DNA of 64,000 bases from Prevotella sp. oral taxon 475. GTDB lineage: Bacteria; Bacteroidota; Bacteroidia; Bacteroidales; Bacteroidaceae. The notes under the pieces were generated by a model. The model saw only the letters and a list, made by a program, of their open reading frames with translations. It made no database searches and was not told the DNA's origin. The translations under genes and the position numbers were made by a program. Below are positions 9,321 to 59,082 of the stretch, in pieces (position 1 is the first letter of the stretch; every line of letters begins with the position of its first letter). The DNA lies in the NCBI RefSeq assembly GCF_018127805.1, contig NZ_CP072334.1:2396001-2460000 (forward strand), in the 5' to 3' direction.

Positions 9321-9410
9321 GCAAAAGCTTAGCTTTCACCGCGCATTTTCTTAGCTTTCGCATGCCATTCTCTTAGCTTTTGCAGGTCAAAAGCTAAGGT
9401 TTTGCAAAAC
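9321..9410. repeat. AGCTAAG array 1 (four 22-bp units)
   Basis: Three units read on the - strand at 22-bp steps (cores at about 9325, 9350 and 9372) and a fourth core in the opposite orientation (AAAAGCTAAGG near 9390). The array is bounded on the right by the palindrome GTTTTGCAAAAC. It lies between the end of rnc and the exporter promoter. It belongs to the seven-member family described in the findings. The rest of the 9066-9585 gap holds only the promoter and a terminator. Confidence 0.9.
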
Positions 9411-9480
9411 CACTTCTCAACAGTCCTATTCAGACGGGGCAAATGCGATGGGAGTAAAGCCCCCGACCAACGAGAAAGAT

Positions 9481-9530
9481 AAAGGCAAGGAGGACGGCGC
9501 ACGTTGGTGTGTACCGTCCTCCTTGCCTTT
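9481..9530 (-). terminator. intrinsic terminator of the acpP-fabF-rnc operon
   Basis: Perfect 17-bp arms AAAGGCAAGGAGGACGG (9481-9497) and its complement (9514-9530), followed leftward by TTTATCTTTCT. It lies 55 bases after the rnc stop codon. Confidence 0.85.
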
Positions 9531-9585
9531 GTTGATACCGTTTCCGGTTGTCTTTGCACTGGCTTTAAAGGGCCTGGAGCGAGAA

Positions 9586-10965
9586 TTACTCTGAGAAAGC
9601 GGCGGCCTCAGCGGCAGCGATGATGTCTTCGCGCGACTGCTCTTTGGCCGTGATATGACTCAAGTCGAAGTCGGGATCTTCCTCCTTGGCAGAGGATTTT
9701 TGAGGCTTTTCGATCTCCATCCGAGGCTCTTGCAGAGCGTTCTCCGACTCCTGACCGACATGGACTTCTTCCTTGGCAGCCGGCTTCTTCCTTCTTCGCG
9801 GCGTAGTTGCGGCCCCTTCCACAGCGTCATCTGCCTTTTCAGCAGCGGTGCGTTCCTTCTTCTTCGGCGATGCAGCCGGTTTCTCCGTCTCCGCCTTTCT
9901 TCTTCGTGTGGCAGAAGCGGAGGTATCGGCAGCCATCGGCTTTTCTTCTTTGGTGGCAACGATCGACTCCGAATCAGTCGATTCTGCCGGTTTACGGCGC
10001 GTTCTTGGTTTGCGTTCCGTCTGTTTCTCAGAGAGTGCAGGTTCGGCGTTCTCCTTTGGCAGCTCGGCCGGGGCTTCCACAACGGCCGTTTCCTGGGGAG
10101 CTTCTGCCACAATCGTTTGTTCGGAAACGATGATGAAGTCGTTTTGTGGCTCCGTATCGGGCACACTGCTCACGGGTTCTTCCTCCATCTTCGTGCGTTG
10201 GGTCTTGGCTGCAAACACCTCGTCTATGAAAGAAGGTTCCTTTTTGAGTCGTTCCAGCGTGAGTTTGGAAGCTAACTGCTGACTCTCTTTCTTGCTATAG
10301 CCCTTGCCCACACAGCCTTCGACACCTTCGAGCACAGCGCAGAACAAGAAAAACGGACTTCCGTTTTTGTCTTTTCCCTGCTCTTTCACCTTGAAATCGA
10401 GTTTGACGCGATTCTTTTGGCTCCATTCAATGAGCTTACTCTTGAAGTTCACCTCCTTATAGGCCACCTTGTCGATGTTGATCATCTTGGCCAGGATGCG
10501 CTGTTCCATGAATTTCATGCAGCGGGTGTATCCTCTATCCAAATAGATCGCTCCCACTAAGGCCTCGAAAGCATTGCCTCCCATGTAGTTGTTGTGGGAA
10601 GAGCTGCGCCCAGACGAAAGAATCAGTCTACTGATGCCCATCTCCTGAGCAAGCTTGTTCAGTGTTTCGCGCTGCACGAGCTTACTCCTCGTGTTGGTAA
10701 GAAAGCCTTCCCGCTTGCCGGGGAAGTGGCGATAGACGATGTCTCCTACGATAGCGTCGAGGATAGCGTCGCCTAAGAACTCCAATCGCTCGTTGTTGGC
10801 CGGCTTTCCGTTGGCTCCGCGGCGCATCACACTTTTGTGCATCAACGCCAATTTGTAGTATCGGATGTCTCGAGGGTAAAAGCCGAGGATGCGATACAGA
10901 GACGAATAAAGCTCCTTTTCCTTGCGGAAAGGGAGCTTTATCCTATCGATAAGATTACTCAGCAT
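9586..10965 (-). CDS. rnc: ribonuclease III with long charged C-terminal tail
   Basis: Cleaves double-stranded RNA (rRNA precursors and structured mRNAs). The catalytic RNase III domain covers about residues 15-160, with signature NERLEFLGD at 58-66 and the catalytic GNAFEALVGA segment with Glu134. A double-stranded RNA-binding domain follows (about 170-242). Residues from about 245 to 459 are an unusual low-complexity tail, rich in K, R, E, A, P and T with TRRRK, SPKKKE and TPRRRKK blocks, doubling the usual length of about 230-250. The start codon overlaps the end of fabF by 11 bases, so translation is probably coupled. The tail could bind nucleic acid or partners; this is inference. Confidence 0.95.
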   Translation of the reverse strand: MLSNLIDRIKLPFRKEKELYSSLYRILGFYPRDIRYYKLALMHKSVMRRGANGKPANNERLEFLGDAILDAIVGDIVYRHFPGKREGFLTNTRSKLVQRETLNKLAQEMGISRLILSSGRSSSHNNYMGGNAFEALVGAIYLDRGYTRCMKFMEQRILAKMINIDKVAYKEVNFKSKLIEWSQKNRVKLDFKVKEQGKDKNGSPFFLFCAVLEGVEGCVGKGYSKKESQQLASKLTLERLKKEPSFIDEVFAAKTQRTKMEEEPVSSVPDTEPQNDFIIVSEQTIVAEAPQETAVVEAPAELPKENAEPALSEKQTERKPRTRRKPAESTDSESIVATKEEKPMAADTSASATRRRKAETEKPAASPKKKERTAAEKADDAVEGAATTPRRRKKPAAKEEVHVGQESENALQEPRMEIEKPQKSSAKEEDPDFDLSHITAKEQSREDIIAAAEAAAFSE

Positions 10966-12217
10966 ACTTTTTGAAGATCACACAAGCGTTATGTCCACCG
11001 AAACCGAACGTGTTGCTCAGAGCCGCACGCACCTTACGCTGTTGCGCTTTGTTGAAAGTGAAGTTCAGATTGTAGTCGATGTTCTCGTCTTTGTCTGCCT
11101 CTTCGTGATTGATGGTGGGCGGAATGAGGTCGTTTTTCACGGCCAGCACACACGCCATCGCCTCAACGGCACCGGCAGCACCCAGCAAATGGCCCGTCAT
11201 CGACTTGGTAGAGCTGATGTTGAGCTTGTAGGCAGCCTCGCCAAAGAGTTCTTTAATAGCCTTGGCCTCTGAAATATCGCCCACCGGAGTCGACGTTCCG
11301 TGCACGTTGATATAGTCGATATCCTCGGGTTTCATACCTGCATCCTCCAGCGCATTTTGCATAACGAGACGCGCACCCAAGCCTTCGGGATGACTGGCGG
11401 TGATATGATGTGCGTCGGCACTGGCCCCTTCGCCTACCATTTCGGCATAGATCTTTGCTCCACGAGCCTTTGCATGCTCAAGTTCTTCAAGAATCAAGCA
11501 GCCAGCACCTTCTCCCATGACGAATCCATCACGGCTGGCACTGAACGGACGAGAAGCATGTGCAGGGTCATCGTTGCGAGTTGACAAGGCATGCATGGCG
11601 TTAAAGCCACCCACTCCGCAACCGCAGATAGCGGCTTCGGCACCTCCGGCCACAATCACGTTGGCTTTTCCCAAGCGGATGAGGTTGAAAGCATCGGCCA
11701 AAGCATTAGTAGACGATGCACAGGCAGAAGTGGTTGCATAGTTAGGGCCATGAAGACCGTACATGATCGATATGTGTCCGGCGGCAATATCGGCAATCAT
11801 CTTCGGGATGAAGAAAGGGTTGAACTTGGGTTCTTCCCCAAGATGCTGTCCGAAATAGGTCACCTCGTCTTCAAATGTTTTGATACCGCCGATGCCTACG
11901 CCGTAAACTACGCCAATGCGGTTGCGGTCTTCGCTCTCCAAGTCGAGTCCGCTGTCTTTCATTCCCTGCATGGCAGCGATGATGGCGAGCTGTGTATAGC
12001 GGTCCATCTTTCGTGCTTCTTTGCGGTCGATATAGTCGGTTACGTTCAGACCTTTTACCTCGCAGGCGAACTTTGTTTTGAATTTGGTTGTATCGAATGC
12101 CGTAATCGGGGCGGCACCACTCTTACCGGCAACTAAGTTTTCCCAAGTTTCCTCGGGCGTATTGCCTACAGGAGTAACGGCACCGAGTCCTGTTACTACT
12201 ACTCTTTTTAACTCCAT
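10955..12217 (-). CDS. fabF: beta-ketoacyl-ACP synthase II
   Basis: A 420-residue condensing enzyme that elongates acyl-ACP with malonyl-ACP in type II fatty acid synthesis in the cytoplasm. The Cys-His-His triad is visible: Cys166 in TTSACASST, His306 in NVHGTSTPVGD and His343 in KSMTGHLLGAAG. Full length for the family. It lies between acpP (220 bases upstream) and rnc (overlapping by 11 bases), the gene order commonly seen in Bacteroidales. Confidence 0.97.
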   Translation of the reverse strand: MELKRVVVTGLGAVTPVGNTPEETWENLVAGKSGAAPITAFDTTKFKTKFACEVKGLNVTDYIDRKEARKMDRYTQLAIIAAMQGMKDSGLDLESEDRNRIGVVYGVGIGGIKTFEDEVTYFGQHLGEEPKFNPFFIPKMIADIAAGHISIMYGLHGPNYATTSACASSTNALADAFNLIRLGKANVIVAGGAEAAICGCGVGGFNAMHALSTRNDDPAHASRPFSASRDGFVMGEGAGCLILEELEHAKARGAKIYAEMVGEGASADAHHITASHPEGLGARLVMQNALEDAGMKPEDIDYINVHGTSTPVGDISEAKAIKELFGEAAYKLNISSTKSMTGHLLGAAGAVEAMACVLAVKNDLIPPTINHEEADKDENIDYNLNFTFNKAQQRKVRAALSNTFGFGGHNACVIFKKYAE

Positions 12218-12437
12218 CTATGAAATAAAATTAGCTTTAAAAGCGTTTTCGGCGCAATCAATGGGGTAAAGAAAGGGTGATTGAGAAAAAAGTCGTTTAG
12301 CCTTTGCATTTCCGCCTTCAACTGCGAAAGTCGAAATCTGCCGTTGAATAAAAATAGGGATAGCCCTAAGGGGGAATTGAGTTTTTGGGTATGGCGCTAT
12401 CAAAGAGATAGAACGCCATAACCAAAAGCATCAAACA

Positions 12438-12674
12438 TTACTTCGAGTTCTCCTCGATGTAAGCGATAGCATCGCCTACTGTACCGATTTTCTCTGCCTT
12501 ATCATCAGGAATAGAGATGCCAAATTCTTTCTCAAATTCCATGATCAGCTCTACAGTATCAAGAGAATCTGCACCAAGGTCGTTTGTGAAGCTTGCTTCG
12601 GGCTTTACCTCTGCTTCGTCTACACCAAGTTTGTCAACGATGATAGCTTTTACTTTCGATTCGATTTCTGACAT
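12438..12674 (-). CDS. acpP: acyl carrier protein
   Basis: A 78-residue acidic protein with the phosphopantetheine attachment site Ser37 in [10 protein letters not shown]. It carries growing acyl chains as thioesters for fatty acid synthesis, including the fabF enzyme encoded next. Length and the four-helix pattern are typical. The 220-bp gap to fabF has no convincing gene; the short ORFs in it lack ribosome sites. Confidence 0.98.
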
Positions 12675-12729
12675 AATTGTAATTTTTTTAATTGTGTTTG
12701 TAATTAAATTTCATCCAAAAATTCGGGTG

Positions 12730-12760
12730 CAAAGGAAAACATTTTTATTCATACTCGCAA
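12730..12760 (-). promoter_or_regulatory. probable acpP promoter
   Basis: On the - strand TTG (12760-12758), 20 bases, then TTCCTTTG (12737-12730), a one-mismatch version of the TAnnTTTG -7 box. Start of transcription would be about 50 bases before the acpP ATG. Confidence 0.45.
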
Positions 12761-12928
12761 ATATTTCGTGCAAAAAAGCACTCTTTATTGCACACTACAC
12801 CCATGGTTGTGCATGTTTTGAGGGCTTTTGTTAACATTTTAGTCCTCTTTTTTTAATGTCTCGTAGCAAAGGAATGAAGGCATGTTGATGGATTTTCGGT
12901 GTCCCAAATGAAAGAAAAACGTTGCACA

Positions 12929-12946
12929 TATATATAATAAGGTGTA
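12929..12946 (+). repeat. TATATATAATAAGGTGTA element, copy 1
   Basis: An 18-base AT-rich element; the identical 18-mer occurs at 23209-23226, and its 15-base core TATATATAATAAGGT occurs on the other strand at 48445-48459 and 63877-63891. It is in the 752-bp gap between acpP and the DUF1735 lipoprotein gene, facing away from both. Apart from this, the acpP promoter, a pyrimidine tract (about 13060-13145), repeat array 2 and a terminator, I see nothing coding in the gap. Confidence 0.7.
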
Positions 12947-13145
12947 CCGAAAACCGATGATACCCCTCCAGGGAGGAGCGAATGTGCCGATGAAAACGGA
13001 GCGCAGAGGATATGATTTGTCATCATTTGACAACCAATTACCTACAAAAATACCGTGCATTACTCCCCTCCTTACCGCGCACAAATTCTCTCCTTAATCC
13101 TCACTCCATTCCCCCTTACTACTTACTCCTTCCCTCCTTACTACT

Positions 13146-13232
13146 TAAAAGCTAAGCTTTCGCACATCGTTTTCTTAGCTTTTGCACTCCAATCTCTTAG
13201 CTTTTGGCATGCGTTTTCTTAGCTTTTGGAAA
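13146..13232. repeat. AGCTAAG array 2 (four 22-bp units)
   Basis: Four units at 22-bp steps, read on the - strand, with CTTAGCTTTTG cores near 13173, 13195 and 13218 and a terminal palindromic core AAAGCTAAGCTTT at 13148-13160. A pyrimidine-rich stretch with repeated CTTACTACTTACT precedes it directly on the left. It lies downstream of the DUF1735 gene terminator. Confidence 0.9.
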
Positions 13233-13357
13233 TTGTTTGTAACCGATTGAAGTGAAGAGAGAAAGAAGGAGGAGGTGGCTTTCAGGCCGCAGGAGAGTTG
13301 ATCGCTACCAGTATCTGCACCCTGAGCTGGCGGATCATCGGGCACTGCACAAAGAAA

Positions 13358-13401
13358 CATCTCTGCCGAGAGCCCCAAAGAGGGACATCTGGGCAGAGAT
13401 G
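13358..13401 (-). terminator. terminator of the SusCD/GH18 locus
   Basis: Arms CATCTCTGCC (13358-13367) and GGCAGAGATG (13392-13401), followed leftward by TTTCTTTG. It lies 25 bases beyond the stop codon of the last gene of the glycan locus. Confidence 0.6.
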
Positions 13402-13426
13402 CTTTGACAATGAAAGGACAACTACG

Positions 13427-14623
13427 CTATTCAGGACACCGAACGGCATCTACAAACGAGGGCACACCGCCGTCGTACCAGCCATAATAATAGGCGTCGT
13501 AACCGTTTCCGGTGAGGTCGGTCACGATGTAATAAGAGCCCGACTGGTGCGCTTCGTTAAACCGCCAGTAGGCCACCAGCCCCTCGGAGAGCGGGTCTAC
13601 CCAGCAGACATTGTTCTTTAACTCGGCTGCTGTGCGAGCGGTGGCCCACACACGGGCCTCGCTCACCCAACCTTCCATGCAGCGATCGTCGTTGGCAGAC
13701 TGACCGATGAAGAACAAATCGTGCTGCCCGTAGGCACTGGCCAGGCTGATCGTGGGTCGGCTATCGGTAGTTTCGGCTTGCAGTTCGCCGTTGATATAGA
13801 GATATTTCTTACCCGTCTCGCCGTTATAGACGCAGGCCAGATGCACCCATTTGTCGTTGGGCAGCACGTCACGAGAGTCCATGTGGTTGGGATCTCCCAG
13901 TTGTAGCTTCCAGCCATCTTTGGGTCCGCCGGCCGTTCTTAAGCAAAGGTTCTCTTCAAGCCCCATCACCGAGTAGCACCACTTACTGCTGCTGGCGTTC
14001 ATCTTTCGAAAACGCACGCGCGCCTCAAAGGTAACGGTCTTCATGGCCTTGGTGTTGAACTTGGACTCGTGGCTGAAATCGGCATAATAATACCGCCAAG
14101 GCTGATCCAAGTCGGCCGCCTTGGTGACGATTACCTGGTTCACTACGACGTAAATGGTGCGCGACGCCTCGATCACAGGCAGCTTCCCGCCTTCCACCTT
14201 CTCAATGCTCACGGGCAGAACATAGGTGATGCCCATCTTCATATCGTCTCGATTGACGATGCTCAGACGCATACCGGTGGTCGTGATATGCTTCCCTTGT
14301 TCTATTTTCAGCTGAGTGTTGTCGAGTTTGTAGGCACTGGCGGGCAGCAACTCATAGTTTTTGTGGTGTTCTTTGTTGAAGGTCTCCACCAGTTCGGGGT
14401 TCACCTTCATGTCGATCGTCAGGTTCTCAGTGGCCAACGACGAGGAAGCCACGTTGATACCGATGGCCGACGGAACATCGTCTACGGTGAGTGCCGCCGT
14501 CACGTCTTTGCCTTCAGTGCCCACGATGTACACTCCGTCATAATAACCCGGGCTGTTTTTACAAGCAACCCAAAGCAAAATCGATAACAGAATGGGAAGT
14601 TTCCCTACTATTGATTTCATCAT
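13427..14623 (-). CDS. DUF1735 / LamG-like glycan-binding lipoprotein
   Basis: A 398-residue lipoprotein with signal peptide and lipobox (LLWVACKN). Residues of about 25-165 match the DUF1735 pattern found in Bacteroides glycan-locus proteins (repeated VNPELVETFNKEHHKNYELL-like and LPVSIEKVEGGK-like strands). The C-terminal half (about 185-390) has a concanavalin-like LamG pattern (FEARVRF, WVHLACVYNG, KYLYINGEL, VSEARVWATARTAAEL, GLVAYWRFNE). It most likely binds glycan at the cell surface alongside SusD and the GH18 enzyme. It is the last gene of the locus, 47 bases after GH18. I use the ATGATGAAA start rather than an in-frame codon further upstream, because it fits the signal peptide. Confidence 0.8.
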   Translation of the reverse strand: MMKSIVGKLPILLSILLWVACKNSPGYYDGVYIVGTEGKDVTAALTVDDVPSAIGINVASSSLATENLTIDMKVNPELVETFNKEHHKNYELLPASAYKLDNTQLKIEQGKHITTTGMRLSIVNRDDMKMGITYVLPVSIEKVEGGKLPVIEASRTIYVVVNQVIVTKAADLDQPWRYYYADFSHESKFNTKAMKTVTFEARVRFRKMNASSSKWCYSVMGLEENLCLRTAGGPKDGWKLQLGDPNHMDSRDVLPNDKWVHLACVYNGETGKKYLYINGELQAETTDSRPTISLASAYGQHDLFFIGQSANDDRCMEGWVSEARVWATARTAAELKNNVCWVDPLSEGLVAYWRFNEAHQSGSYYIVTDLTGNGYDAYYYGWYDGGVPSFVDAVRCPE

Positions 14624-14670
14624 TTTTCTTATATTAATAGTGATTTTTGAGAACAAACAAGCAGCAAGCC

Positions 14671-15687: not shown

Positions 15688-15713
15688 TTTCTTATTGCTT
15701 TAGGTTCATTCTT

Positions 15714-17285: not shown

Positions 17286-17391
17286 TTTATTTCTTTATTT
17301 TGCTGAGATGCGAGTGTAGCTCGCCCGATGGCTCGACCTTGTCTTTCCTTTTCCGCTGAGAAGGTTTTCCCGTTCTCGAGCGGCTGCCTTG

Positions 17392-17479
17392 CAAAAGCTA
17401 AGAAAACACCTTGCAAAAGCTAAGGAAACGCACGCTAAAAGCTAAGCTTTCGAGGCACAAAAGCTAAGAGATGGAAATG
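17392..17479 (+). repeat. AGCTAAG array 3 (four 22-bp units)
   Basis: Four consecutive 22-base units start at 17392, 17414, 17436 and 17458, with cores AAAAGCTAAG (A, G, C or A next). The array separates the susC stop from the susD start within what should be one operon; it reads on the strand opposite to the genes. Confidence 0.92.
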
Positions 17480-17552
17480 GGATTTGTAAGTCGCTGTGTG
17501 CAAAACACTTATCCGATGCCTTCTCTCGTGCCATCACTCGCAGGATGGAACA

Positions 17553-20828: not shown

Positions 20829-21057
20829 GTTTAAGGTGATTTTAGATTTCTGCACACGCCTTTTCTTTGCTGTGTGCTTGTAAATAAATAGATTGTTATT
20901 TCGTGGGGAAAAGAGGCTGCACACAGTAGCGCAGCAGAGTGTTGGATTGCTGGAAGAGCGTGCGGCACGAGCCGTATTCCCCTTGCTCTTCGTTGATTTC
21001 ATTCTTTTTTCTGTGTCATAGAGGTAGGTTTCTTTGTTTTAGAAATGAGTTATCGAT

Positions 21058-22239: not shown

Positions 22240-22251
22240 CAAAGAATAATG

Positions 22252-25029: not shown

Positions 25030-25150
25030 GACACCTCTCCTTATTACTTACTACTCCCCTCCTCGACACTTATCACACCTCCCTTTACTCCTTACTACTC
25101 CCCTCCTTACTACTTACTACTTCTCTCCTTACTACTTACTCCCCCTCTCT
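25030..25150 (+). other. pyrimidine-rich CTTACTACT tract
   Basis: About 120 bases almost entirely of C and T with scattered A, built from imperfect repeats of CCTTACTACTTACT. A shorter tract of the same kind precedes array 2 at about 13060-13145. No convincing ORF; the translated frames are low complexity. The remaining part of the 24720-25612 gap contains the palindromes, array 4 and the M16 gene leader. Confidence 0.6.
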
Positions 25151-25158
25151 TTATTTTT

Positions 25159-25246
25159 CAAAAGCTAAGAAAACGATGTACGAAAGCTAAGAAAACGCAC
25201 GCCAAAAGCTAAGAAAATGAAGTGCAAAAGCTAAGAGATGGAGAAA
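25159..25246 (+). repeat. AGCTAAG array 4 (four 22-bp units)
   Basis: Units start at 25159, 25181, 25203 and 25225, all C(A/G)AAAGCTAAG followed by AAAACG, AAAACG, AAAATG and AGATGG. A hairpin ATGCCTtatcAGGCAT follows directly. Preceded by the pyrimidine tract. Confidence 0.93.
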
Positions 25247-25409
25247 TGCCTTATCAGGCATTGGTAATAAAACAGTTATACATCTGGAAACGGATCAAGA
25301 ACGACAACGAGCGAAAAGTGCTTTTGCCGATACACAGGTGATGAGGATGCAACTTATCTATATTCGTGCATATATTTGTTAAAAGAAAAAACAAATCGAG
25401 GAAAATCAT

Positions 25410-29965: not shown

Positions 29966-30047
29966 GCCCAGATGGCGGAATAGGTAGACGCGCTGGTCTC
30001 AAACACCAGTGGAGCAATCCATCCCGGTTCGAGCCCGGGTCTGGGTA
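29966..30047 (+). tRNA. tRNA-Leu (anticodon CAA)
   Basis: Acceptor strands GCCCAGA and TCTGGGT plus discriminator A, anticodon stem-loop CTGGT-CTCAAAC-ACCAG with anticodon CAA, a variable arm (TGGAGCAATCCA) as expected for a class II tRNA, and T-arm CCCGGTTCGAGCCCGGG. CCA is not encoded. The AT-rich island begins just after its terminator, suggesting this tRNA or its surroundings as integration site. Confidence 0.93.
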
Positions 30048-30051
30048 CTAT

Positions 30052-30095
30052 AAATCTCTTGTAAGTTTTTGACTTACAAGAGATTTTGTTTTTCT
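30052..30095 (+). terminator. tRNA-Leu terminator
   Basis: Perfect 15-bp arms AAATCTCTTGTAAGT (30052-30066) and ACTTACAAGAGATTT (30072-30086) followed by TGTTTTT. Confidence 0.9.
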
Positions 30096-30277
30096 AACAT
30101 ATACTAAAAGCCTACTATATAACAATATTATGAGAAAAGTGTACTTTTATAGTTTCTCGCCACTTATATTTAATTAATGGCAACTTTCCCCTTTTATTCT
30201 GTTTGTTTCCCTTTCTCGGCTTTTTCTCCAATGAATGCCCTATCTTTGTAAACAGTACCCATCATAGAAATTGCAAA

Positions 30278-31032
30278 ATGGGAAATGACAATCTAAAGAT
30301 ACAGCTTGACAGTATTCAACGAATAATTACAACGATGAAGTTTTGTGGGAAAGCTCCTTCTTTGAATCATTGACCAAAGAACAAAAACAGAAACATACCT
30401 CTTTATCTGTTTCTTCATTTGAATATGCGAAATACATTAAGGCACACACCTTATATAATGATGCCCTGCCGATGTTCTCGTATCTTGTTGATGCAATTCT
30501 ATATGAACGATACGCAAAATGTCTCATGGTAGAAATAGAACGAATTGAATTGACAGAGATACAAACCGATCGGTCTCGCTCTTCAGTCTTGATAAACGAT
30601 GAACCATGTAAGCAGAAAAGGAAACCTGTCATCGTTGGTAAAAGGACAACTCCATTTCAATCAGATTTTACAGACGAGCAAATTGAGATTCTTACCGCTT
30701 GCATCAACGAAATTCAATTATTTACAACTTGCATATCTTCCAAGATACTCAAAGATTTTTTTGCTTGTAAGCTAAAAGGTGCCCTGAAATCAAACAACAA
30801 CCGCCAGTTGGCGTATCTCATGCAAAGTCTTAATCTTCGAGGGTTCATTACTGATGAATGGCAATCTGCGATTGCTCGTAATGAACTTGTCTTGGGGAAA
30901 ACAAAAGATACGCCACTGACACGCACCGACCTTTCCACCGCAACAGACCAAATCAATATGAAGCAACCGAAAAGATGGGAAACCATTGATAACTACATCA
31001 AACAACTGAAAAAAAGGTTGAGCATAGGTTGA
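30278..31032 (+). pseudogene. mobile-island protein, probably frameshifted near its start
   Basis: The main reading frame (from about 30343, 229 residues) has no ATG at its start: it begins with a TTG inside what looks like coding sequence. A good ATG with an upstream TATCTTTG box (30241-30248) lies at 30278 in another frame; its 31 codons (MGNDNLKIQLDSIQ...) run straight into the region where the main frame takes up (DEVLWESSFFESLTKEQKQ). A single-base deletion around 30330 would explain this. The protein is unrecognised: charged, helical, no motifs, C-terminus KQLKKRLSIG. Its place as first gene of the island suggests an accessory or regulatory role. Alternatively TTG is used as a start. 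Confidence 0.5.
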
Positions 31033-31103
31033 TATCTCAAACATTGCTCAACGTCATTTACTTTTATCGTTTCTAATTTTGCCCTCGTTAACAAATAATT
31101 AAC

Positions 31104-31117
31104 GAAGGTGCACCTTC
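31104..31117. promoter_or_regulatory. 14-bp palindrome, possible operator
   Basis: GAAGGTGCACCTTC is a perfect palindrome 28 bases upstream of the HTH gene. Its position fits autoregulation by a dimeric DNA-binding protein; this is inference. Confidence 0.4.
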
Positions 31118-31145
31118 ATATTGTTTAATTCAAAATGTTTTCAAT

Positions 31146-31439
31146 ATGAACAAGACATTAGAAACTCGAGTTGAAGAACTCGAACAAATGGTATTCATGA
31201 ATAAGAATGTGTTGAGTTTTGAAGAAGCCAGCAAGTTCTTAAACCTCTCAAAGAGTTATCTCTACAAACTCACATCAGGGAACCTGATACCACATTACAA
31301 ACCGCAAGGTAAAATGCTTTACTTTGAGAAAGCTGAACTTGAAGCGTGGCTACGGCAGAACCCAGTTAAAACTGCTGCACAAATAAATCAAGAAGCCCAG
31401 CGGTATATAATGAGTAGCAAACCCTTAATGCAGAAATAG
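31146..31439 (+). CDS. helix-turn-helix (excisionase-type) protein
   Basis: A 97-residue protein: short coiled-coil start (ETRVEELEQMV), then a MerR/excisionase-like HTH_17 domain (LSFEEASKFLNLSKSYLYKLTSGNLIPHYKPQGKMLYFEKAELEAWL, described here by its key residues at about 21-67). Proteins like this open the replication/mobilisation modules of Bacteroides mobilizable elements and act as excisionase or regulator. The stop is three bases before the next gene, so the two are co-translated. A copy of its last 20 or so codons is found near 39700. Confidence 0.85.
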   Translation: MNKTLETRVEELEQMVFMNKNVLSFEEASKFLNLSKSYLYKLTSGNLIPHYKPQGKMLYFEKAELEAWLRQNPVKTAAQINQEAQRYIMSSKPLMQK

Positions 31440-31442
31440 CTC

Positions 31443-32624
31443 ATGGCACAGGAAGAATTTATCCGTGTTGGCACGACCTTATACAAGATTGTGAATCAAC
31501 CACGCATCAATGGCGGTTTTGTCAAGAAGCGTATCGTCTGGAACAATGAAACGCTACGGCAGGATTATGGAAAGGATTTTATTGCCACAGTCTCGAAGTA
31601 TGATGGTTTCTGCACCGTTCCCAATCATGTGGACTATCAACCTGTAATTGATAAGTTTCTTAATCTCTACGAGCCGATAGGACACCTGCCAAAAGAAGGA
31701 GAGTTTCTACACATCGAATCATTGATAAGACATATCTTCGGTGAACAGTATGAGTTAGGCATGGATTACTTGCAATTGCTCTATCTCCACCCCGTGCAGA
31801 AACGCCCCATTCTCCTGATGGTGTCAGAAGAACGCAACACAGGCAAGAGTACGTTCCTTAACTTTCTCAAAGCTGTTTTTCAAAACAATGTTACTTTCAA
31901 CACCAACGAGGATTTTCGCAGCCAATTCAATGTTGATTGGGCTGGTAAACTGCTCATTGTCGTGGACGAGGTCTTGCTCAACTGTAGGGAGGATAGTGAA
32001 CGATTGAAAAATTTCAGCACAACGCTTTCCTACAAGATGGAAGCCAAGGGCAAAGACCGAGACGAAATCTCCTTCTTTGTGCTGTGTTCCAATAACGAGT
32101 TACTCCCTGTCATTATAGACATAGGAGAAACCCGATATTGGGTAAGGAAGATAAATCGTCTGGAGAGTGACGATACCGAGTTTCTTCAGAAGTTGAAAGC
32201 AGAGATACCTGCCTTTCTTTATTTTCTCCAGCATCGCACGCTGTCTACCCAAAAGGAAAGCCGTATGTGGTTTGCAACCAAGCTGACCTTTACACTAGCC
32301 TTGCAACGCATTATCCGCAGCAACCGCAATAAGATTGAGTTGGAAATGTCCGAACTCTGTTTGGAGATTATGGATCAGATGGTTGTTACCGAACTTTCAT
32401 TCTGTATCAATGATATGGTGTGCTTGCTGAACAACACAGGCTATAAGGCAGACAAGAGTCAAGTCCGCAGGATTGTGCAGGATATATGGAAACTCATTCC
32501 TGCCTCCAACACGCTGACATATCTGACTTATCAGATGGATTACAACAGCTTGCGGAATTATTCACCCATCAAGCGGACAGGCAGGTACTATACCCTAACC
32601 AAAGAACAACTCACAAACATTTAA
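31443..32624 (+). CDS. primase-helicase family ATPase of the island
   Basis: A 393-residue P-loop ATPase similar to the DUF5906 / superfamily 3-like helicases of mobile elements. Walker A is SEERNTGKST (128-137) and Walker B LIVVDE (171-176); a sensor region FFVLCSNN follows. The C-terminal portion resembles a winged-helix domain. Such proteins unwind DNA for replication of the excised circular form. It is full length and intact, unlike the primase that follows. A remnant of its N-terminal 80 codons occurs near 39760-39970. Confidence 0.8.
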   Translation: MAQEEFIRVGTTLYKIVNQPRINGGFVKKRIVWNNETLRQDYGKDFIATVSKYDGFCTVPNHVDYQPVIDKFLNLYEPIGHLPKEGEFLHIESLIRHIFGEQYELGMDYLQLLYLHPVQKRPILLMVSEERNTGKSTFLNFLKAVFQNNVTFNTNEDFRSQFNVDWAGKLLIVVDEVLLNCREDSERLKNFSTTLSYKMEAKGKDRDEISFFVLCSNNELLPVIIDIGETRYWVRKINRLESDDTEFLQKLKAEIPAFLYFLQHRTLSTQKESRMWFATKLTFTLALQRIIRSNRNKIELEMSELCLEIMDQMVVTELSFCINDMVCLLNNTGYKADKSQVRRIVQDIWKLIPASNTLTYLTYQMDYNSLRNYSPIKRTGRYYTLTKEQLTNI

Positions 32625-39970: not shown

Positions 39971-39977
39971 TGCATCT

Positions 39978-46620: not shown

Positions 46621-46648
46621 GGCCAGTCCATTTCACCCCATAAAGAAA

Positions 46649-46684: not shown

Positions 46685-46705
46685 ATAAAAACACGATTCC
46701 GCTTA

Positions 46706-47662: not shown

Positions 47663-48175
47663 TTTTTATTCTTTAGGTGCAACCTCGGCGAAAGACCAAA
47701 CAAATGTGTCTCGCCCACGACCCGCATCCAAAAGGGGATGACACAGGGGTTGATATCAAAAGACGTTGCAAAGGTAATAAAAAAAGCAATAGGAGAGGCA
47801 CCCGCTTAACAGTTTTTGTCCGCGCGTAGCTCTCTCTTTCTGCGCGCTCGAGCCCGCTGTCCAACTTTTATACAAGGGTCTCAGCAAAGAAGCTCTGCGG
47901 TACCACAAATTACATTTATTTAACTTCTCACCTCGTTTTTTACACAATTCTCCTTGCTGTTTCGTTGCTTTGAGGGGCACCATTGCCCTCCCACAAAACC
48001 CAGACAGTGAGCCAGCCCGAGTCTATCGTGCCACGATGGCCAGACACGCCACTTGCTCATGCAATGAGGACAACGCTCAAACACCCCACGCTTTCCCACA
48101 GGTTGCGCTCTTCTTTCCCCGTCCATCCGCACCCCTTCATCATCTCTTGACCATCAAGGACTGACAAGCCTCTTT
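47663..48175. other. intergenic stretch without recognised genes
   Basis: About 510 bases between the M23 peptidase start and repeat array 5. I see no ORF with a recognisable protein or ribosome site; apparent frames are short and arginine- or serine-rich. A -7-like box for the M23 gene is not obvious. Confidence 0.5.
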
Positions 48176-48264
48176 CCATTCTCTTAGCTTTTGAACCTCA
48201 AAAGCTAAGAGAATGGTGTGCAAAAGCTAAGAAAACGCGTTGCGAAAGCTTAGCTTTTGCAAAA
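48176..48264. repeat. AGCTAAG array 5 (four 22-bp units, first inverted)
   Basis: Units start at 48199, 48221 and 48243 on the + strand, preceded by an inverted unit (48177-48198). The inverted and first direct units make a perfect 19-bp hairpin with a 3-base loop (48176-48194 with 48198-48216). The last unit ends in the palindromic AAAGCTTAGCTTT core. Unlike arrays 3, 4, 6 and 7, one unit is flipped. Confidence 0.93.
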
Positions 48265-48444
48265 CAGGCTGTTTGGTTTTGATGGGGGTAAACTACGATC
48301 GTTGTGGATAGGATATGGGCTGACGCAGGACCGTATGAATAGGTGAGTGAGCAATGATTGCTGCGAATAGACCGTTTGTCGACACATTTTTCCTGCTGTT
48401 CGCTCTATCCAGACGAAAGCGATGCGATTGAAATCATCGTCCAT

Positions 48445-48459
48445 ACCTTATTATATATA
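48445..48459 (-). repeat. TATATATAATAAGGT element, copy 3
   Basis: Exact 15-base core on the - strand, 20 bases to the left of the sialidase terminator hairpin. Confidence 0.65.
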
Positions 48460-48479
48460 GGAAGTAAACATAACATACG

Positions 48480-48510
48480 GAGGCCTTCTGCGGGTTGCAG
48501 AAAGCCTCCA
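48480..48510 (-). terminator. hairpin after the sialidase gene
   Basis: GGAGGCcTTCTGC and GCAGAAaGCCTCC arms (48480-48492 and 48498-48510) form an almost perfect stem 22 bases past the sialidase stop; the following U content is low. Confidence 0.55.
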
Positions 48511-48531
48511 TGATGTAAGAGCAGCATGCCG

Positions 48532-50154: not shown

Positions 50155-50281
50155 AGAAAGAATAGATAAAGTTGATCTGTTAACGAATGGATGAGTGAAC
50201 CAGGAAGAAGGTGGGTTGAATCAGTTGAGAAGGGATCTGAGTTGACCCGTCAACAAAAATCCTTTCTCAGCTGGTCAACTT

Positions 50282-52339: not shown

Positions 52340-52469
52340 AAAAAAGAGATTTTTACAAACAGGGCAACGGTTGTTTTCTCGGTTTGTCGCCCTCCTTCGG
52401 CACCCTCTCTTCGAGGCTTTTTACCGTCTTTCTAACTCTCTTATTTTCAATGTCTTATGAAAGGCTTTG

Positions 52470-52579
52470 TAAAAGCTAAGCTTTTGAACCTCAAACACTA
52501 AGAAAACACACTTCAAAAGCTAAGAGATGGACCTGCGAAAGCTAAGCTTTTGCAGACGCATGCCTTGACATGCGTCTGC
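52470..52579. repeat. AGCTAAG array 6 (four 22-bp units) plus hairpin
   Basis: Units start at 52470, 52492 (degenerate: CAAACACTAAG), 52514 and 52536. The last unit runs into a perfect 11-bp hairpin, GCAGACGCATG (52552-52562) with CATGCGTCTGC (52569-52579). The array lies in the 311-bp gap between the two GH20 genes; the hairpin may end transcription from the upstream one. Confidence 0.92.
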
Positions 52580-52650
52580 AAAGAGAGTAGAAAAGAGGAT
52601 GAACGGGGGGCTCGAAGACCGAGATCAAGAAGGCCTGCGAGGAGACGTTT

Positions 52651-54279: not shown

Positions 54280-54392
54280 ATGATTGTTAATGATGGGTGA
54301 GTTTTCTTAGTCTTTAAATAGAAGGATTGCCAAGCGTGTTTTGAAAGCGGGTGAGCTTTGAGCGGAACTCAAAAACTCACCGGCTTGGAAAC

Positions 54393-55364
54393 TTAAATGC
54401 TGTTGTTCTTCACAAAGTCTACAATTTCTTTGATGTAGCCAAAGGCCATTCCTACGACGGTATCTGCCGCTCCGTAGTATACGGCCACTCGTTCTCCGTC
54501 TTGCAAAGCGGCACAAGGGAACACTACATTGGGCACATCTCCTTGCAGTTCGTAGGGTGCTGCGGGAGCAAGAAGATAGGGACGGGTGCGATAAAGCACC
54601 TTTTCGGGGTGGTCTTTATCGAGAATGGCCGCTCCCATCGAATAGCGAAAACCGTTGCAAGTGGTGATCACACCGTGATAGAAGATGAGCCAACCCTCGT
54701 CAACAAGGAACGGAACAGAACCTGCTCCGATCTTTGTGCACTGCCAAGCACTCTCCGGAAAGGGTGTCACTTTCATCACACAACGGTGCTCTCCCCAGTA
54801 TTTCATGTCGGGACTGTAACTCAAATAGATGTCGCCGAAGGGTGTATGCCCGTTGTCGCTGGGCCTACTGAGCATTGCATATTTGCCGTTGATCTTCTCA
54901 GGAAAGAGCACACCGTTGCGATTAAAGGGCAGGAAGGCGTTCTCGCACTGGTAGAACTTTTTGAAATCGAAGGTGTAGGCAATGCCGATCGTGGGTCCGT
55001 GATAGCCATTACACCAGGTAATCCAGTATCGATCCTCAATCCACGTTACCCGTGGGTCGTATTTATACTCGGATTCGATCATCTCTGTGTTGCCGGCCTC
55101 AAAAGAAATGGGTTCGTGTTGGATGTCCCAGTGAAGACCATCTTTGCTGAATCCGGCAAAGATATTCATCTGAACCGACTTGTTATCGCATCGGAATACG
55201 CCGGCAAAACCGTCTTCAAAGGGCACAACGGCACTGTTGAAGATGCTGTTTGAGGTAGGGATGTGGTAGCGTCCGATGACCGGATTCTTAGAATAACGCC
55301 ACATCACGTCTGTCGTTCCCGCAGGTCTTTCTTCCCAGGGCATGATGTCTTTTAGCTGTTTCAT
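54393..55364 (-). CDS. GH130 beta-mannoside phosphorylase (probable Man-GlcNAc phosphorylase)
   Basis: A 323-residue cytoplasmic phosphorylase without signal peptide, five-bladed propeller style ([90 protein letters not shown]). GH130 enzymes split beta-mannosides with phosphate to mannose-1-phosphate. In Bacteroidota N-glycan loci the subfamily in this setting acts on Man-beta-1,4-GlcNAc, and the neighbouring MFS carrier and glycosidases support that. The mannose-1-phosphate could feed GDP-mannose synthesis. It follows the MFS gene by 95 bases. Confidence 0.88.
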
Positions 55365-55459
55365 TGTTATTTTGGGTTTTTATGTTTTTGAATTGAATAG
55401 TCGATGAGCGATTCGTTTTTCTTCCTTTTATCTGAGAAAAGAAACAGGTTGAGGTTCTT

Positions 55460-56794
55460 TCACGAGACAGTTTCTCCTGATTCGCTTTCCGTTTTCACAG
55501 GGGCGGAATAAGTAAACGGCACGAAATAGGTGATAAGGAAGGCCGGAATGGTGGCCACCAGCGTAAAGACAAAGAAGTATTTGTAACCCAATGCATCGCT
55601 GATAAAGCCGCTGATGCTGCCCGGAAGCATCACTCCGAGATTCATAATGCCCGATGCGAAGGCGTAATGGGCCATCTGATGCTTGCCGGGAGCCACTTGT
55701 TGCATCATGAAAAGGGTAAGACCTACGAAGCCAAAGCCATAACCGAAGTATTCCAACGTGATGGCTCCACCGATGAGAAGACCGTTTTCCGGCTGATAGA
55801 AAGAGAGTAAGGTATAGGCCACAAAGGGCAAATTGAACACGCAACAGAGCGAGAAAAGCGTCTTTTTCAGTCCGAAATGCGAGATGTAATAGCCCGCAAG
55901 AATCGATCCTAAGACAAAGGCTGCTGCCCCGAACGTACCATAATAAATTCCGATTTCTTCTTCGCTAAGTCCCAAACCGCCGATGTTACGACCGGCTTTG
56001 AGGAAAAGCGGAACGATTTTCATCACAAACCCTTCTGCAAAACGATAGAGAATGATGAAACATATATAATAGATAATGTGTCGTTTGTGGAAGAAGTCGC
56101 CCAAAACCTCTAACAAACGCTGCCATGTTTCGCGAGCACTCTCGGCTTTTTTTACGGCTACTCCGCCTGAGGGAAGCATTCTACTGTGATACAAACTGAG
56201 TAAAACCAAAATGCCGCCAAGGGCCATCATCACGATCATCCAGGCTTGAACGGTGGCCCGTTGCATAACTTCCGCCGACGCACCGGGCACTCCTCCATTC
56301 TGTTTGAGCAGCCAACCGGCCAACCAAACCAGTCCTCCCGAGGCCACAATCTTGGCAATATTGTAGAAAGCCCCTTGCCAACCGATGAACCGAGCTTGGT
56401 CTTCCTTGCTCAGTTCCGACATATATACGCCATCGGCAGCAATGTCATGGGTAGCACCGCTAAAGGCAATGATGGCCATGAGCACAATGCAAAGGGTGAA
56501 GAAGTGGGGCAAATGCAGAGCCAAACCTACCAAACCGAAGCCCACACCCGTGATTAACTGTGAGAGAACGACAAAGAACTTCTTCGTTTTGTACATCTCT
56601 AAGAACGGGCTCCACAAGAATTTCAGTGTCCATGGCATCATAATCCACGACGTCCAAAAGGTGATTTGTCCGTCGCTGATGCCCATTCCCTTGAACATCA
56701 GTACCGAAACCATGTTCAGCACCACAAAGGGAAGCCCCATGGCAAAGTAGACTGAGGGCACCCAAGTGATGGGATTGCTTTTGATTGAGGTCAT
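55460..56794 (-). CDS. MFS transporter, probable oligosaccharide importer
   Basis: A 444-residue permease with 12 predicted membrane segments, AmpG/PAT-like (WVPSVYFAMGLPFVVLNMVSV; SWIMMPWTLKFLWSPFLE; GATHDIAADGVYMSEL). Beside a GH130 phosphorylase this fits the importer of Man-GlcNAc from the periplasm, as in the known Bacteroides N-glycan operon; the substrate is inferred from context. It sits 90 bases after the fucosidase gene. Confidence 0.85.
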   Translation of the reverse strand: MTSIKSNPITWVPSVYFAMGLPFVVLNMVSVLMFKGMGISDGQITFWTSWIMMPWTLKFLWSPFLEMYKTKKFFVVLSQLITGVGFGLVGLALHLPHFFTLCIVLMAIIAFSGATHDIAADGVYMSELSKEDQARFIGWQGAFYNIAKIVASGGLVWLAGWLLKQNGGVPGASAEVMQRATVQAWMIVMMALGGILVLLSLYHSRMLPSGGVAVKKAESARETWQRLLEVLGDFFHKRHIIYYICFIILYRFAEGFVMKIVPLFLKAGRNIGGLGLSEEEIGIYYGTFGAAAFVLGSILAGYYISHFGLKKTLFSLCCVFNLPFVAYTLLSFYQPENGLLIGGAITLEYFGYGFGFVGLTLFMMQQVAPGKHQMAHYAFASGIMNLGVMLPGSISGFISDALGYKYFFVFTLVATIPAFLITYFVPFTYSAPVKTESESGETVS

Positions 56795-56884
56795 TTTCTG
56801 TTGATGAATTTTGATATGTTTGAGTTTCTTTTGTTAGGAGATCCATATACGGTAGAACGCTTAATGGCTGCGAATCCTTCCCTT

Positions 56885-58747
56885 TCACCTCACGACAATC
56901 TGCTTCCACCGTAGTTGTTTGCCCTTGGATAGCCGAGTGGCAACCAATTTTAGGTAGCGCGTTTGTAAGCCCGGAAGCGTAAGAGTTTGAGGGATGGGAT
57001 TGTTCTCGATATTCGAAAATTCGCCACCCAGCCAGCGTTTCCACTCCAACATATCGTCAGAAGCATACAGTTCGTAGTGAGTGGCCAGTCCGTCTTGATC
57101 GTTTTCGAGGGGGATATACACCAGTTGGCGACAAGCTACAGGCTCTTGCAGATCTATGAGCACAGCGTTGCTGCTGTCGTTGGCTATCGCTATGTTCAGA
57201 GAAGGCATCTGTTCATGAGCCGTCGAAGCTTTTTGCAGTGCCGATGCCGGGATTTTTACGGCGTCCTTAGGCAGCGGTGGAGCACAATACACACCGATAT
57301 TCGAGATGAGCGGACAAGCCTTGGCATCATTGATGGTGAATCGTAGACGTGTGGTCTTGATGGTTGGGAAGCACACAATGCGTTTATAGCCAATCGTAGT
57401 GAGGCCCGTTGTACCCTCGGGAGCCCGTTCATCGCGCAGCGAAACCCACTTTCCGCCGACCCACGCTTCGAGTGTGAAACGCTTGACGCGCTGTCCCAGG
57501 GCGATATATTCCTGCGCAAGGAAACGGTTGATGCGTGTCGGTCGTTGGAAAGTCAGCGTCAGCGAAGCCCTTTTCACGCCATCATCGGTGGCCCAGTAGG
57601 TGTTTGTGCTACCGTCTATGGCCTTATCGGCGGCATAGGTCTTGCTTGCGCCGCGCACTTGCGATGCCGTTATCGTAGCGTTGCGGGCCAGATTGTGCGC
57701 CAGTTCGGCCCGAATCGTCTGCGCCATTGCCACGGCATGCGCCGAGTCGATAGGATGAATCAGTCCGTTTCGCGTGATGGGAAAGTTCAACAGCAGAGAG
57801 GCGTTGCGGCCCACCGACTCATAATACGTATCCACCAGTTTTTTTAAGCTTTTCACTTGGCTGTCTTCACGATCGTGATAGAACCATCCCGGGCGGATGG
57901 ACGTGTCGCATTCTCCGGGCGACCAGTGTTGTCCGCCCTCCTGTCCGTTCATCAATGTGTCTCTGGGCGTATCGAAAACATAGTCGATGGTGCACCAGTT
58001 GGTGAGTCCGGCAAATCCCTTCTCGGTTCCGATCCACCGCAATTCGGCTCTGTCTCCCCAAATAACCAGATTGGGTTGGAGCCGATGGATGAGGTCGAAT
58101 GTGGTCTTCCAGTCGTAGTAAGTGGCACCGTCGATTTGACGATTTTCCCTTGCTCCGCCATAATAACCTGTTCCGCCGTTAGCTCCATCGAACCAAACTT
58201 CAAACATTTCGCCATAATTGGTGAGCAGTTCTTCCAGTTGATTGCGAAAATAAGTGAGGTAAGCCGGACGGCCATAGTCGGCAAAATTTCGATCCCAGGG
58301 CGAGAGATACACGGCAAACTTCAGTCCGTATTCCCGGCAGGCATCGGCCAATTCGCGCACCACATCTCCCCGTCCGTCTTTCCACGGAGCGTTTTTTACC
58401 GAATATTCGGTGTATTTCGACGGCCACAGACAGAAGCCGCTGTGATGTTTGGCCGTGAGAATGATGCCCTTCATCCCGGCGTTTTTACAGGTGCGGGCCC
58501 ATTGTCGTGCATCCAAATGCGAGGGATTGAAAAGCTGCGGATCTTCATCACCGAATCCCCACTCCTGATCAGTGTAGGTATTGAGGGAATAATGCAGAAA
58601 GGCATAGGTCTCCAGCTCGTGCCATTTCAGTTGATTCGCATTGGGAATCGGGCCGCAGGGAGCGGGAACCGTCACAGGTTTCTTAGTGCCTGCACAAAGA
58701 CCGAGCGTCAGTGTCGTGAGAAACACTGCAAATAGGGTTCTTTTCAT
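56885..58747 (-). CDS. GH29 alpha-L-fucosidase with discoidin-like domain
   Basis: A 620-residue secreted enzyme (signal peptide about 1-20). The GH29 barrel shows WGFGDEDPQLFNPSHLDARQWA, ILTAKHHSGFCLWPSK and the nucleophile region FEVWFDGANGG; the acid/base is less clear. After about residue 345 an F5/8-type C region (KAIDGSTNTYWATDDGVKRASLTLTFQRPTRINRFLAQEYI) and a second beta domain follow. It removes fucose (core or antennary) from host glycans. It starts the run fucosidase-MFS-GH130-GH20. Confidence 0.94.
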   Translation of the reverse strand: MKRTLFAVFLTTLTLGLCAGTKKPVTVPAPCGPIPNANQLKWHELETYAFLHYSLNTYTDQEWGFGDEDPQLFNPSHLDARQWARTCKNAGMKGIILTAKHHSGFCLWPSKYTEYSVKNAPWKDGRGDVVRELADACREYGLKFAVYLSPWDRNFADYGRPAYLTYFRNQLEELLTNYGEMFEVWFDGANGGTGYYGGARENRQIDGATYYDWKTTFDLIHRLQPNLVIWGDRAELRWIGTEKGFAGLTNWCTIDYVFDTPRDTLMNGQEGGQHWSPGECDTSIRPGWFYHDREDSQVKSLKKLVDTYYESVGRNASLLLNFPITRNGLIHPIDSAHAVAMAQTIRAELAHNLARNATITASQVRGASKTYAADKAIDGSTNTYWATDDGVKRASLTLTFQRPTRINRFLAQEYIALGQRVKRFTLEAWVGGKWVSLRDERAPEGTTGLTTIGYKRIVCFPTIKTTRLRFTINDAKACPLISNIGVYCAPPLPKDAVKIPASALQKASTAHEQMPSLNIAIANDSSNAVLIDLQEPVACRQLVYIPLENDQDGLATHYELYASDDMLEWKRWLGGEFSNIENNPIPQTLTLPGLQTRYLKLVATRLSKGKQLRWKQIVVR

Positions 58748-58994
58748 TCGTCAATAAGGGGGTTAGTCTTAATTCAAGTTGAAAGGTACTGCTTTTTCTT
58801 TGTTCGCCCCACATCCTTTCACATTGTTTAAAGATAAAGACGTTCTGCAGTCGTTGCCGCCTCGAAACGGCTGGTGCAAAATTATAATATTTCCCCCACA
58901 AACGTTACATATAGAACGTTTTTGTTGCGCCAAACGAACAAAGCCCAGTTCGTTTGAGCATTGCCATGGCGAGAGAACATGACCGCACGTTTTT

Positions 58995-59082
58995 CAAAAG
59001 CTAAGAAAACGAAGGGCAAAAGCTAAGAAAATGAGGTGCGAAAGCTAAGAGAATGGAACGCAAAAGCTAAGAGATGAGAATT
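58995..59082 (+). repeat. AGCTAAG array 7 (four 22-bp units)
   Basis: Units start at 58995, 59017, 59039 and 59061, all direct, with tails AAAACG, AAAATG, AGAATGG and AGATGAG. The 615-bp gap between fucosidase and galactosidase genes otherwise holds a terminator (59137-59196), and I see no gene in it. Confidence 0.93.

What the first reader, a model, noticed from the sequence alone, without database searches (positions are those of the whole stretch)
9321..59082. Seven intergenic arrays of exactly four 22-bp units built on AAAGCTAAG
Seven gaps (9321, 13146, 17392, 25159, 48176, 52470, 58995) each hold four units C(A/G)AAAGCTAAG + 5-7 variable bases + 4-6 bases, at 22-bp steps (about two helical turns). 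All lie between genes, none in the AT-rich island, roughly one per 8 kb of backbone. The copy number is always four. The third block of the unit is chosen from a small set (AAAACG, AGAATGG, AGATGG, CTTTTG). Fixed copy number and fixed phase argue against simple microsatellite growth and suggest a bound protein tetramer, an architectural site or a small mobile unit. I know of no named family; absence from my memory is weak evidence.
Basis: partly seen in the sequence, partly recalled or inferred. Interest (0 to 1): 0.88.

Follow-up and report, generated by a model that had tools for sequence, protein, structure and literature searches.

The report
Phased four-palindrome arrays across Prevotella
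An estimated 200 gaps between genes in this Prevotella chromosome each hold four imperfect palindromes exactly 22 base pairs apart, often beside a likely DNA-bending site, and related species keep that layout with quite different palindrome sequences, so the arrays probably dock a four-part protein assembly that would help organise the chromosome.

Summary
In an even 34% sample of the genome (864 kb), 69 of 75 seeds found with the AAAGCTAAG-type profile are arrays of exactly four units on a 22-bp lattice, about 200 genome-wide. Each unit is a 17-bp imperfect palindrome, CAAAAGCT-W-AGCTTTTG, either way round. At 48 of 70 arrays a second palindrome (X) sits at a fixed distance on one side and resembles two back-to-back IHF sites.

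The layout, with a different unit sequence per lineage, occurs in much of Prevotella (148 of 398 genomes match the model). The published, unexplained PINSR repeat of P. intermedia is very probably one version. In G350, with another core, none of 40 listed clusters exceeds four units. Exceptions exist: five units in a rumen Prevotella, six in one variant array of this genome.

Arrays avoid genes, ignore gene direction, thin out away from the skew-defined origin, and keep units better than spacers. Best reading: selected docking sites for four dimers beside an HU/IHF-type bend. The binding protein is unknown and nothing was tested at the bench. Mobile ancestry (P. brunnea, PINSR) and folding (PINSR) are partly supported; a REP/RAYT link is unlikely but not excluded here.

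The parts
9322..9404 (.). array 1, four units (---+)
13146..13228 (.). array 2, four units (+---)
13238..13270 (-). X-like palindrome of array 2, one base further out than usual; below the cut-off at the standard register
   Evidence: profile hit 15.2 bits, not at the exact register
17392..17474 (.). array 3, four units (++++), between a susD-like and a susC-like gene
17483..17515 (-). X palindrome of array 3 (33 bp, predicted HU/IHF-type site)
25159..25241 (.). array 4, four units (++++), between xerD and an M16 peptidase gene
25250..25282 (-). weak X palindrome of array 4
48136..48168 (+). X palindrome of array 5
48177..48259 (.). array 5, four units (-++-)
52429..52461 (+). X palindrome of array 6
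52470..52552 (.). array 6, four units (++++), second one degenerate
58995..59077 (.). array 7, four units (++++)
59086..59118 (-). X palindrome of array 7

Best explanation
Each array is four 22-bp-spaced dyad sites, often beside a palindrome that resembles two back-to-back IHF sites, and it likely docks four dimers of a still unknown DNA-binding protein next to an HU/IHF-type bend, a nucleoprotein bead that would help organise the chromosome. Shown from sequence: four units, 22-bp lattice, dyad symmetry, units better kept than spacers, X at a fixed distance (33 bp centre to centre, three turns), intergenic placement regardless of gene direction, and the same layout in other species with other unit sequences. 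Inferred: that dimers bind the units; that 22 bp (two turns) puts four of them on one face so that they touch; that an HU/IHF-family protein binds and bends X; that the bead serves chromosome organisation rather than the neighbouring gene. The arrays probably first spread as mobile or copied elements (still visible in P. brunnea and as PINSR) and were then kept by selection, with unit sequence and protein changing together in each lineage.
For: Exactly four units in 69 of 75 seeds. Another species with another core (G350): the first 100 of 242 listed units form 40 clusters, all gaps are multiples of 22, 16 clusters span four and none spans more. Mean pairwise identity 0.78 in units, 0.37 in spacers, 0.27 in flanks. 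The dyad survives replacement of the core: CAAAAGTTSAACTTTTG (G350), CAAAAGCATAGCTTTTG (G039), TTCCAGCTAAGTTGGAA (G288); period 22 stands out against 15 other periods in G350 (8 hits against 5 in all others together), G167 (7 against 2), G288 (7 against 3), G368 (5 against 2) and G084 (9 against 3). X: 50 of 51 flanks scoring at least 13 of 17 have it 25 or 26 bp from the array edge; such scores occur in 37% of 138 array flanks and 1.5% of random stretches; exact WATCARNNNNTTR at 19 arrays (25 bp) and 3 (26 bp) of 69, and at none of 85 other registers. HU/IHF-family genes in 12 of 12 genomes. 67 of 68 placeable arrays intergenic, gap types in proportion to available DNA. Density falls from 2.43 to 1.00 per 20 kb away from the skew-defined origin, rho -0.47, p 0.0014; it holds per intergenic kb (p 0.0077) and per gap (p 0.0023).
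Against: No binding protein was found and nothing was tested at the bench. X is below the cut-off at 22 of 70 arrays and was not noticed beside the G288 and G368 arrays. Unit number is not universal: five in RGIG4444, six in a variant array of this genome, longer rows in G368; in the P. brunnea set 35 of 52 have four. The unit identity is inflated because arrays were found by a unit profile. The core-blind finder does not single out period 22 in this genome (9 against 19 in 15 other periods, because units are asymmetric), nor in G010 (1 against 3), G249 (0 against 2), G045 or G345 (0). PINSR elements show folding and some u1:u3 covariation. P. brunnea shows dispersed copies. The origin gradient could reflect gene dosage or core-gene content, and the origin rests on skew only.
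Confidence: 0.45

Rival explanations
1. The arrays are remnants of a non-autonomous mobile element: units are transposase or recombinase sites, X is the host-factor bend of the transposition complex, and four is inherited from the founder.
For: In P. brunnea, 5 of 10 other copies share the 130 bp left of the array with L023 at 76-83% identity and 8 of 10 share the 45 bp on the right at 73% or more. PINSR is about 190 bp with conserved ends. One own array lies where the syntenic P. brunnea gap is empty. In G084 the synteny with G017 breaks at an element edge downstream of tnaA.
Against: In this genome no conserved sequence was seen beyond X and no target duplication was found; units are kept better than spacers; 3 of 4 comparable sites are shared between G084 and G017; no partner enzyme identified.
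Confidence: 0.27
2. The arrays work as folded RNA or extruded DNA: units pair with each other.
For: 51 PINSR elements: alifold energy -52 against -17 in column shuffles (lowest of 20: -24), ends pair, u1 pairs with u3; u1:u3 covariation p 0.004 in G084 and 0.065 in G017; at one orthologous site u1 and u3 differ together between the two species. In this genome plus P. brunnea a weak nested fold also beats shuffles, -14 against -1 (lowest -3.4).
Against: The fold tool finds 0 pairs in 59 elements of this genome and P. brunnea. 26 of 69 arrays have all units one way round and so little antiparallel pairing between units. u1:u2 shows no covariation (p 0.34 and 1.0) and u1 against the better of u2/u3 gives p 0.019 in G017 but 0.65 in G084. 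Column shuffles also destroy plain dyads. No Rfam match in the window.
Confidence: 0.12
3. Operators of a large regulon or transcription terminators.
For: All window arrays lie in gaps next to genes, several of glycan-use type.
Against: Gap types 41 co-directional, 17 divergent, 9 convergent follow available DNA (65/21/14%); no fixed distance to starts or stops; X faces either way.
Confidence: 0.08
4. REP/RAYT-type system: units are REPs moved by a Y1 transposase.
For: Palindromic, intergenic, more than 100 copies, lineage-specific; BIME-1 has an IHF site (passages of PMC2817692). This genome has two Y1 transposase genes and both have an array within about 1.3 kb: two at L287:260-314 and 759-881, and the six-unit variant array at L123:8952-9078; a random point has a 21% chance of that.
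Against: PF01797 absent from 11 of 13 genomes, including array-rich P. brunnea G317, G350, G167 and G084; in L287 both arrays lie on one side of the gene rather than flanking it.
Confidence: 0.05

Closest known systems
[quoted passage not shown] 2015, PMC4755523; abstract and section 3.4 read)
   Same: Intergenic, 177-184 copies per genome in P. intermedia, function unknown. The G084 element has the matching length (about 190 bp), matching location downstream of tnaA, four 22-bp units and X.
   Different: The window's arrays have another unit core and no shared 188-bp body; PINSR was described as group-specific with no internal architecture and no terminal inverted repeats, whereas here its ends can pair.
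REP/BIME-1 elements with an IHF site (passages of PMC2817692)
   Same: High-copy intergenic palindromes, lineage-specific, associated with an IHF site.
   Different: Four dyads at 22 bp, bend site outside the array, no Y1 transposase in most array-bearing genomes tested.
BrickBuilt MITE of Porphyromonas gingivalis (PMC4596501; abstract, section 5 and part 1 of section 7 read)
   Same: Intergenic tandem repeats of similar period in a related order.
   Different: 23-nt repeats in 1 to 22.8 copies, IS5-like terminal repeats, 19 copies per genome.
Plasmid iterons, and SlmA or Noc sites (recalled, not looked up)
   Same: About 22-bp phased repeats (iterons); origin-biased dispersed palindromes (SlmA/Noc).
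   Different: Iterons sit at one origin; SlmA and Noc sites are single palindromes.

Membership tests
PINSR | intergenic repeat of about 188 bp downstream of tnaA in P. intermedia | tested here: met
   For the G084 element: L291:971-1167, just downstream of tnaA; G084 is inferred, not named, as P. intermedia group
PINSR | the published 188-bp consensus sequence | not testable with these tools
   Figure 4A of PMC4755523 is not held
PINSR | window arrays share the PINSR unit core and body | tested here: not met
   Cores CAAAAGCTWAGCTTTTG against CAAAACCTACGCTTTTG and others
REP/BIME with RAYT | cognate Y1 transposase gene in the genome | tested here: not met
   Absent from 11 of 13 genomes; present twice in this genome, near arrays
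REP/BIME with RAYT | high-copy intergenic palindromes | tested here: met
MITE | terminal inverted repeats and target-site duplications | tested here: inconclusive
   No conserved ends beyond X in this genome; PINSR ends can pair; no duplication sought systematically
IHF/HU site (for X) | WATCAANNNNTTR-like consensus | tested here: met
   With R at the sixth base: exact at 19 + 3 of 69 arrays, 0 at 85 other registers; 15 of 16 P. brunnea and 29 of 51 PINSR elements
IHF/HU site (for X) | bound and bent by an HU/IHF protein | not testable with these tools
   Genes present in 12 of 12 genomes; no binding data
Lrp/AsnC octamer site | bound by an Lrp/AsnC protein | not testable with these tools
   Genes in 14 of 14 genomes, with or without detected arrays, so not discriminating

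The most novel reading that the evidence does not exclude
Bacteroidaceae carry a chromosome-wide system of nucleosome-like beads: an octameric protein (four dimers) holds 88 bp of phased dyads beside an HU/IHF hairpin at about 200 intergenic sites per genome. The architecture (four sites, two-turn steps, bend) is frozen while the DNA code it reads is rewritten genome-wide in each lineage.
Probability: 0.2. Interest if true: 0.93.

Novelty: new variant of a known kind. Interest (0 to 1): 0.75.

Why it matters
It turns an unexplained species-specific repeat (PINSR) into one version of a genus-wide, perhaps family-wide design whose geometry is conserved and whose sequence is not. If a protein binds it, these bacteria would have a dedicated chromosome-organising site system with fast-changing specificity, directly testable by pull-down with array DNA. 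It also shows that sequence-based repeat searches miss such families, because only spacing and symmetry are conserved.

Tried and rejected
XerD next to array 4 as the element's own recombinase: it scores as housekeeping XerD, has a strong match in 15 of 15 genomes, and only 3 of the 15 xerD loci hold an array match, at different places. REP/RAYT: disfavoured; the check showed arrays near both Y1 genes of this genome, so I raised it from 0.02 to 0.05. Orthologous sites in P. brunnea: only 24 shared neighbouring gene pairs in the held DNA, one with an own array and an empty P. brunnea gap. M16 locus in relatives: by the A1 profile none of 29 other loci has an array at this site, but that profile sees only related cores; a core-blind scan covered only the first 1,500 bp of 8 loci and found one lattice, about 1.2 kb from the gene in L219 (G288). 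A 227-bp difference at L300/L297 looked like an empty site but is another element. Phage and plasmid collections: no match to window 25100-25300. Viral contigs: 7 stretches with single pattern pairs, not examined. The exact-consensus count used a register off by one; one search replaces it. Half-site correlations in this genome give a grammar, not base pairing.

Rows dropped: A1 uses 43 of 47 own elements with X and 16 P. brunnea elements picked; A2 uses 51 of 54 full-length hits (24 of 26 from G017, 27 of 28 from G084). The 'P. brunnea' set is 41 loci, one of which (L087) is P. corporis, and all were fetched because they hold a pattern hit. Gene calls come from a simple codon model of mine covering 81% of the DNA, so some gaps are too long.
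Full report
Organism. The window is bases 2,396,001-2,460,000 of a single 2,560,308-bp contig.

Observation. All seven arrays are real: 27 exact cores against 0.57 expected. Inverted units occur within arrays and are shifted by 4 bp on the lattice, which fixes the axis of symmetry and defines the unit as CAAAAGCT-W-AGCTTTTG, with one strong half and often one variant half (AGAAAACG, AGAAAATG, AGAGAATG, AGAGATGG). With spacers the consensus approaches TGCAAAAGCTWAGCTTTTGCA plus one free base.

Genome scale. The pair pattern gives 339 hits and none for the reversed control. In 40 evenly spaced 20-kb stretches plus the window, 69 of 75 seeds have exactly four units, one has five, one has two and four are singles; this extrapolates to about 204 arrays. 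The profile sees only AAAGCTAAG-type arrays: a six-unit array with another core, CAATAGGACACCTTTCG and variants, plus an X, lies at L123:8952-9078. Outward-facing halves of the outer units are mostly AGCTTTTG or AGAGATGG, inner halves often AGAAAACG or AGAAAATG; the two inner units usually point the same way.

Selection. Mean pairwise identity is 0.78 in units, 0.37 in spacers and 0.27 in flanks. The unit value is inflated by detection with a unit profile, but a recently copied neutral element would keep its spacers as well as its units; this looks like selected binding sites.

X. At 48 of 70 arrays (28 left, 19 right, 1 both sides) the flank carries a palindrome centred 25 bp outside the array edge, 33 bp from the centre of the first unit; 22 arrays do not pass the cut-off. 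Template matches of at least 13 of 17 sit at 25 or 26 bp in 50 of 51 flanks that have one (51 of 138 flanks; 1.5% of random stretches). With neighbours it reads nTTTnTAAnnnnTTGATAATCAGnnnnTTACAAA. The published IHF consensus WATCAANNNNTTR was seen in a passage of PMC7581858. With R at the sixth base it occurs exactly at 19 arrays (25 bp) and 3 (26 bp) of 69, and at none of 85 other registers. HU/IHF-family genes are present in 12 of 12 genomes tested.

Context. 67 of 68 arrays that could be placed are intergenic; one overlaps a weak ORF call, and 2 of 70 had no called gene on one side. Gap types 41 co-directional, 17 divergent and 9 convergent match the share of available intergenic DNA (65/21/14%); X faces either way and distances to genes vary. 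Density declines from 2.43 to 1.00 arrays per 20 kb with distance from the skew-defined origin (rho -0.47, p 0.0014; per intergenic kb p 0.0077; per usable gap p 0.0023).

Other species. A model of X plus four units matches 148 of 398 Prevotella genomes at E <= 0.01, this genome included, with only 8 candidates scored per genome. Fetched loci show a lineage-specific core: CAAAAGTTSAACTTTTG (G350), CAAAAGCATAGCTTTTG (G039), CAAAAGGTCATCTTTTG (G010) and others; X scores at least 13 of 17 near 25 of these 30 loci, which were found with a model that contains X. A core-blind dyad finder peaks at period 22 in G350, G167, G288, G368 and G084, not in G010, G249, G045, G345 or, because its units are asymmetric, in this genome; G076 has 1 hit against 0. 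In G350 none of 40 clusters among the first 100 of 242 listed places spans more than four units. In RGIG4444 the arrays mostly have five units. In a family-level search 15 of 201 genomes match at E <= 0.001, 11 of them in five other genera. L322 there has an X-like palindrome and four units, the last inverted; L325, L327, L328, L329 and L332 show units at 22 bp with other sequences; L326 looks like a plain tandem repeat and L331 gave no match on re-scan.

PINSR. In G084 and G017 the element is about 190 bp: ends TTTTGTAAAGATAAT and AAAAATATTTACA, four units (the first inverted) and X beside the fourth, about two turns away rather than three. G084 carries tnaA with the element just downstream, as Naito et al. 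report for PINSR (PMC4755523, section 3.4); length, density and intergenic habit agree. So PINSR is very probably this family; its printed consensus could not be seen. Between G084 and G017, 3 of 4 comparable sites are shared and the fourth coincides with a break in synteny.

Folding. PINSR elements have a strong alifold structure and some u1:u3 covariation. The window's species and P. brunnea show 0 pairs in the fold tool and only a weak fold with ribosum scoring, though below all 20 shuffles; 26 of 69 arrays have all units one way round. Folding is a possible added function in one clade rather than the common rule.

Mobility. In P. brunnea 5 of 10 other copies share 130 bp to the left of the array with L023 at 76-83% identity, so spread by copying happened there. 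No transposase partner was established: Y1 genes are absent from 11 of 13 genomes, but the two in this genome both lie within about 1.3 kb of arrays, and XerD is housekeeping.

Mechanism. I commit to protein-docked DNA: four dimers at two-turn steps on one face next to an HU/IHF-type bend, kept by selection after an origin as spreading elements. Docking, contact between dimers, bending and the chromosomal role are inferences. An octameric Lrp/AsnC-type protein would fit the number four (recalled property), but its genes are in 14 of 14 genomes and do not discriminate.

Literature. Searches in the open-licence PMC library led to PINSR and BrickBuilt but, in the listings and the passages read, to no description of 22-bp phased four-dyad arrays; subscription papers and preprints were not searched. 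PMC5771137, PMC7581858 and PMC2817692 were read in passages only.

Noticed in passing
window 13085-13147 and 25034-25153; also flanks in L143, L115, L110: A 22-bp-period minisatellite (CCTCTCCTTACTACTTACTACT) abuts several arrays, often on the side away from X.
   Followed up: partly
L123:8952-9078 (same genome): Six-unit array with a different core plus X, about 1.1 kb from a Y1 transposase gene.
   Followed up: partly
L287:260-314 and 759-881 (same genome): Two arrays, one partial, on the same side of the other Y1 transposase gene.
   Followed up: partly
window 29966-32624: tRNA-Leu followed by a palindromic att-like sequence and an integrase gene at the edge of the island.
   Followed up: no
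window 1558-1613: 28 perfect GT dinucleotide repeats.
   Followed up: no
L023:278, L080:6111, L093:2132 and others (P. brunnea): Dispersed element of about 250 bp with an array whose second unit is a variant (CAATTCATGACCTTTTG).
   Followed up: partly
L300 against L297 (G084/G017): 227-bp insertion with inverted ends near TTGCTGTCCGGTAAAA, a probable MITE unrelated to the arrays.
   Followed up: no
L260-L263 (G368): Longer rows of 22-bp palindromic repeats (AAAACGCACTGCGTTTTGGTGC), no X noticed, in a close relative.
   Followed up: no
L013, L045, L085, L090, L092, L100 (Hymenobacter): CAAAAGCTAAGTTCTGGACAGGT units at 22 and 33 bp in several Hymenobacter species, perhaps ends of another element.
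   Followed up: no
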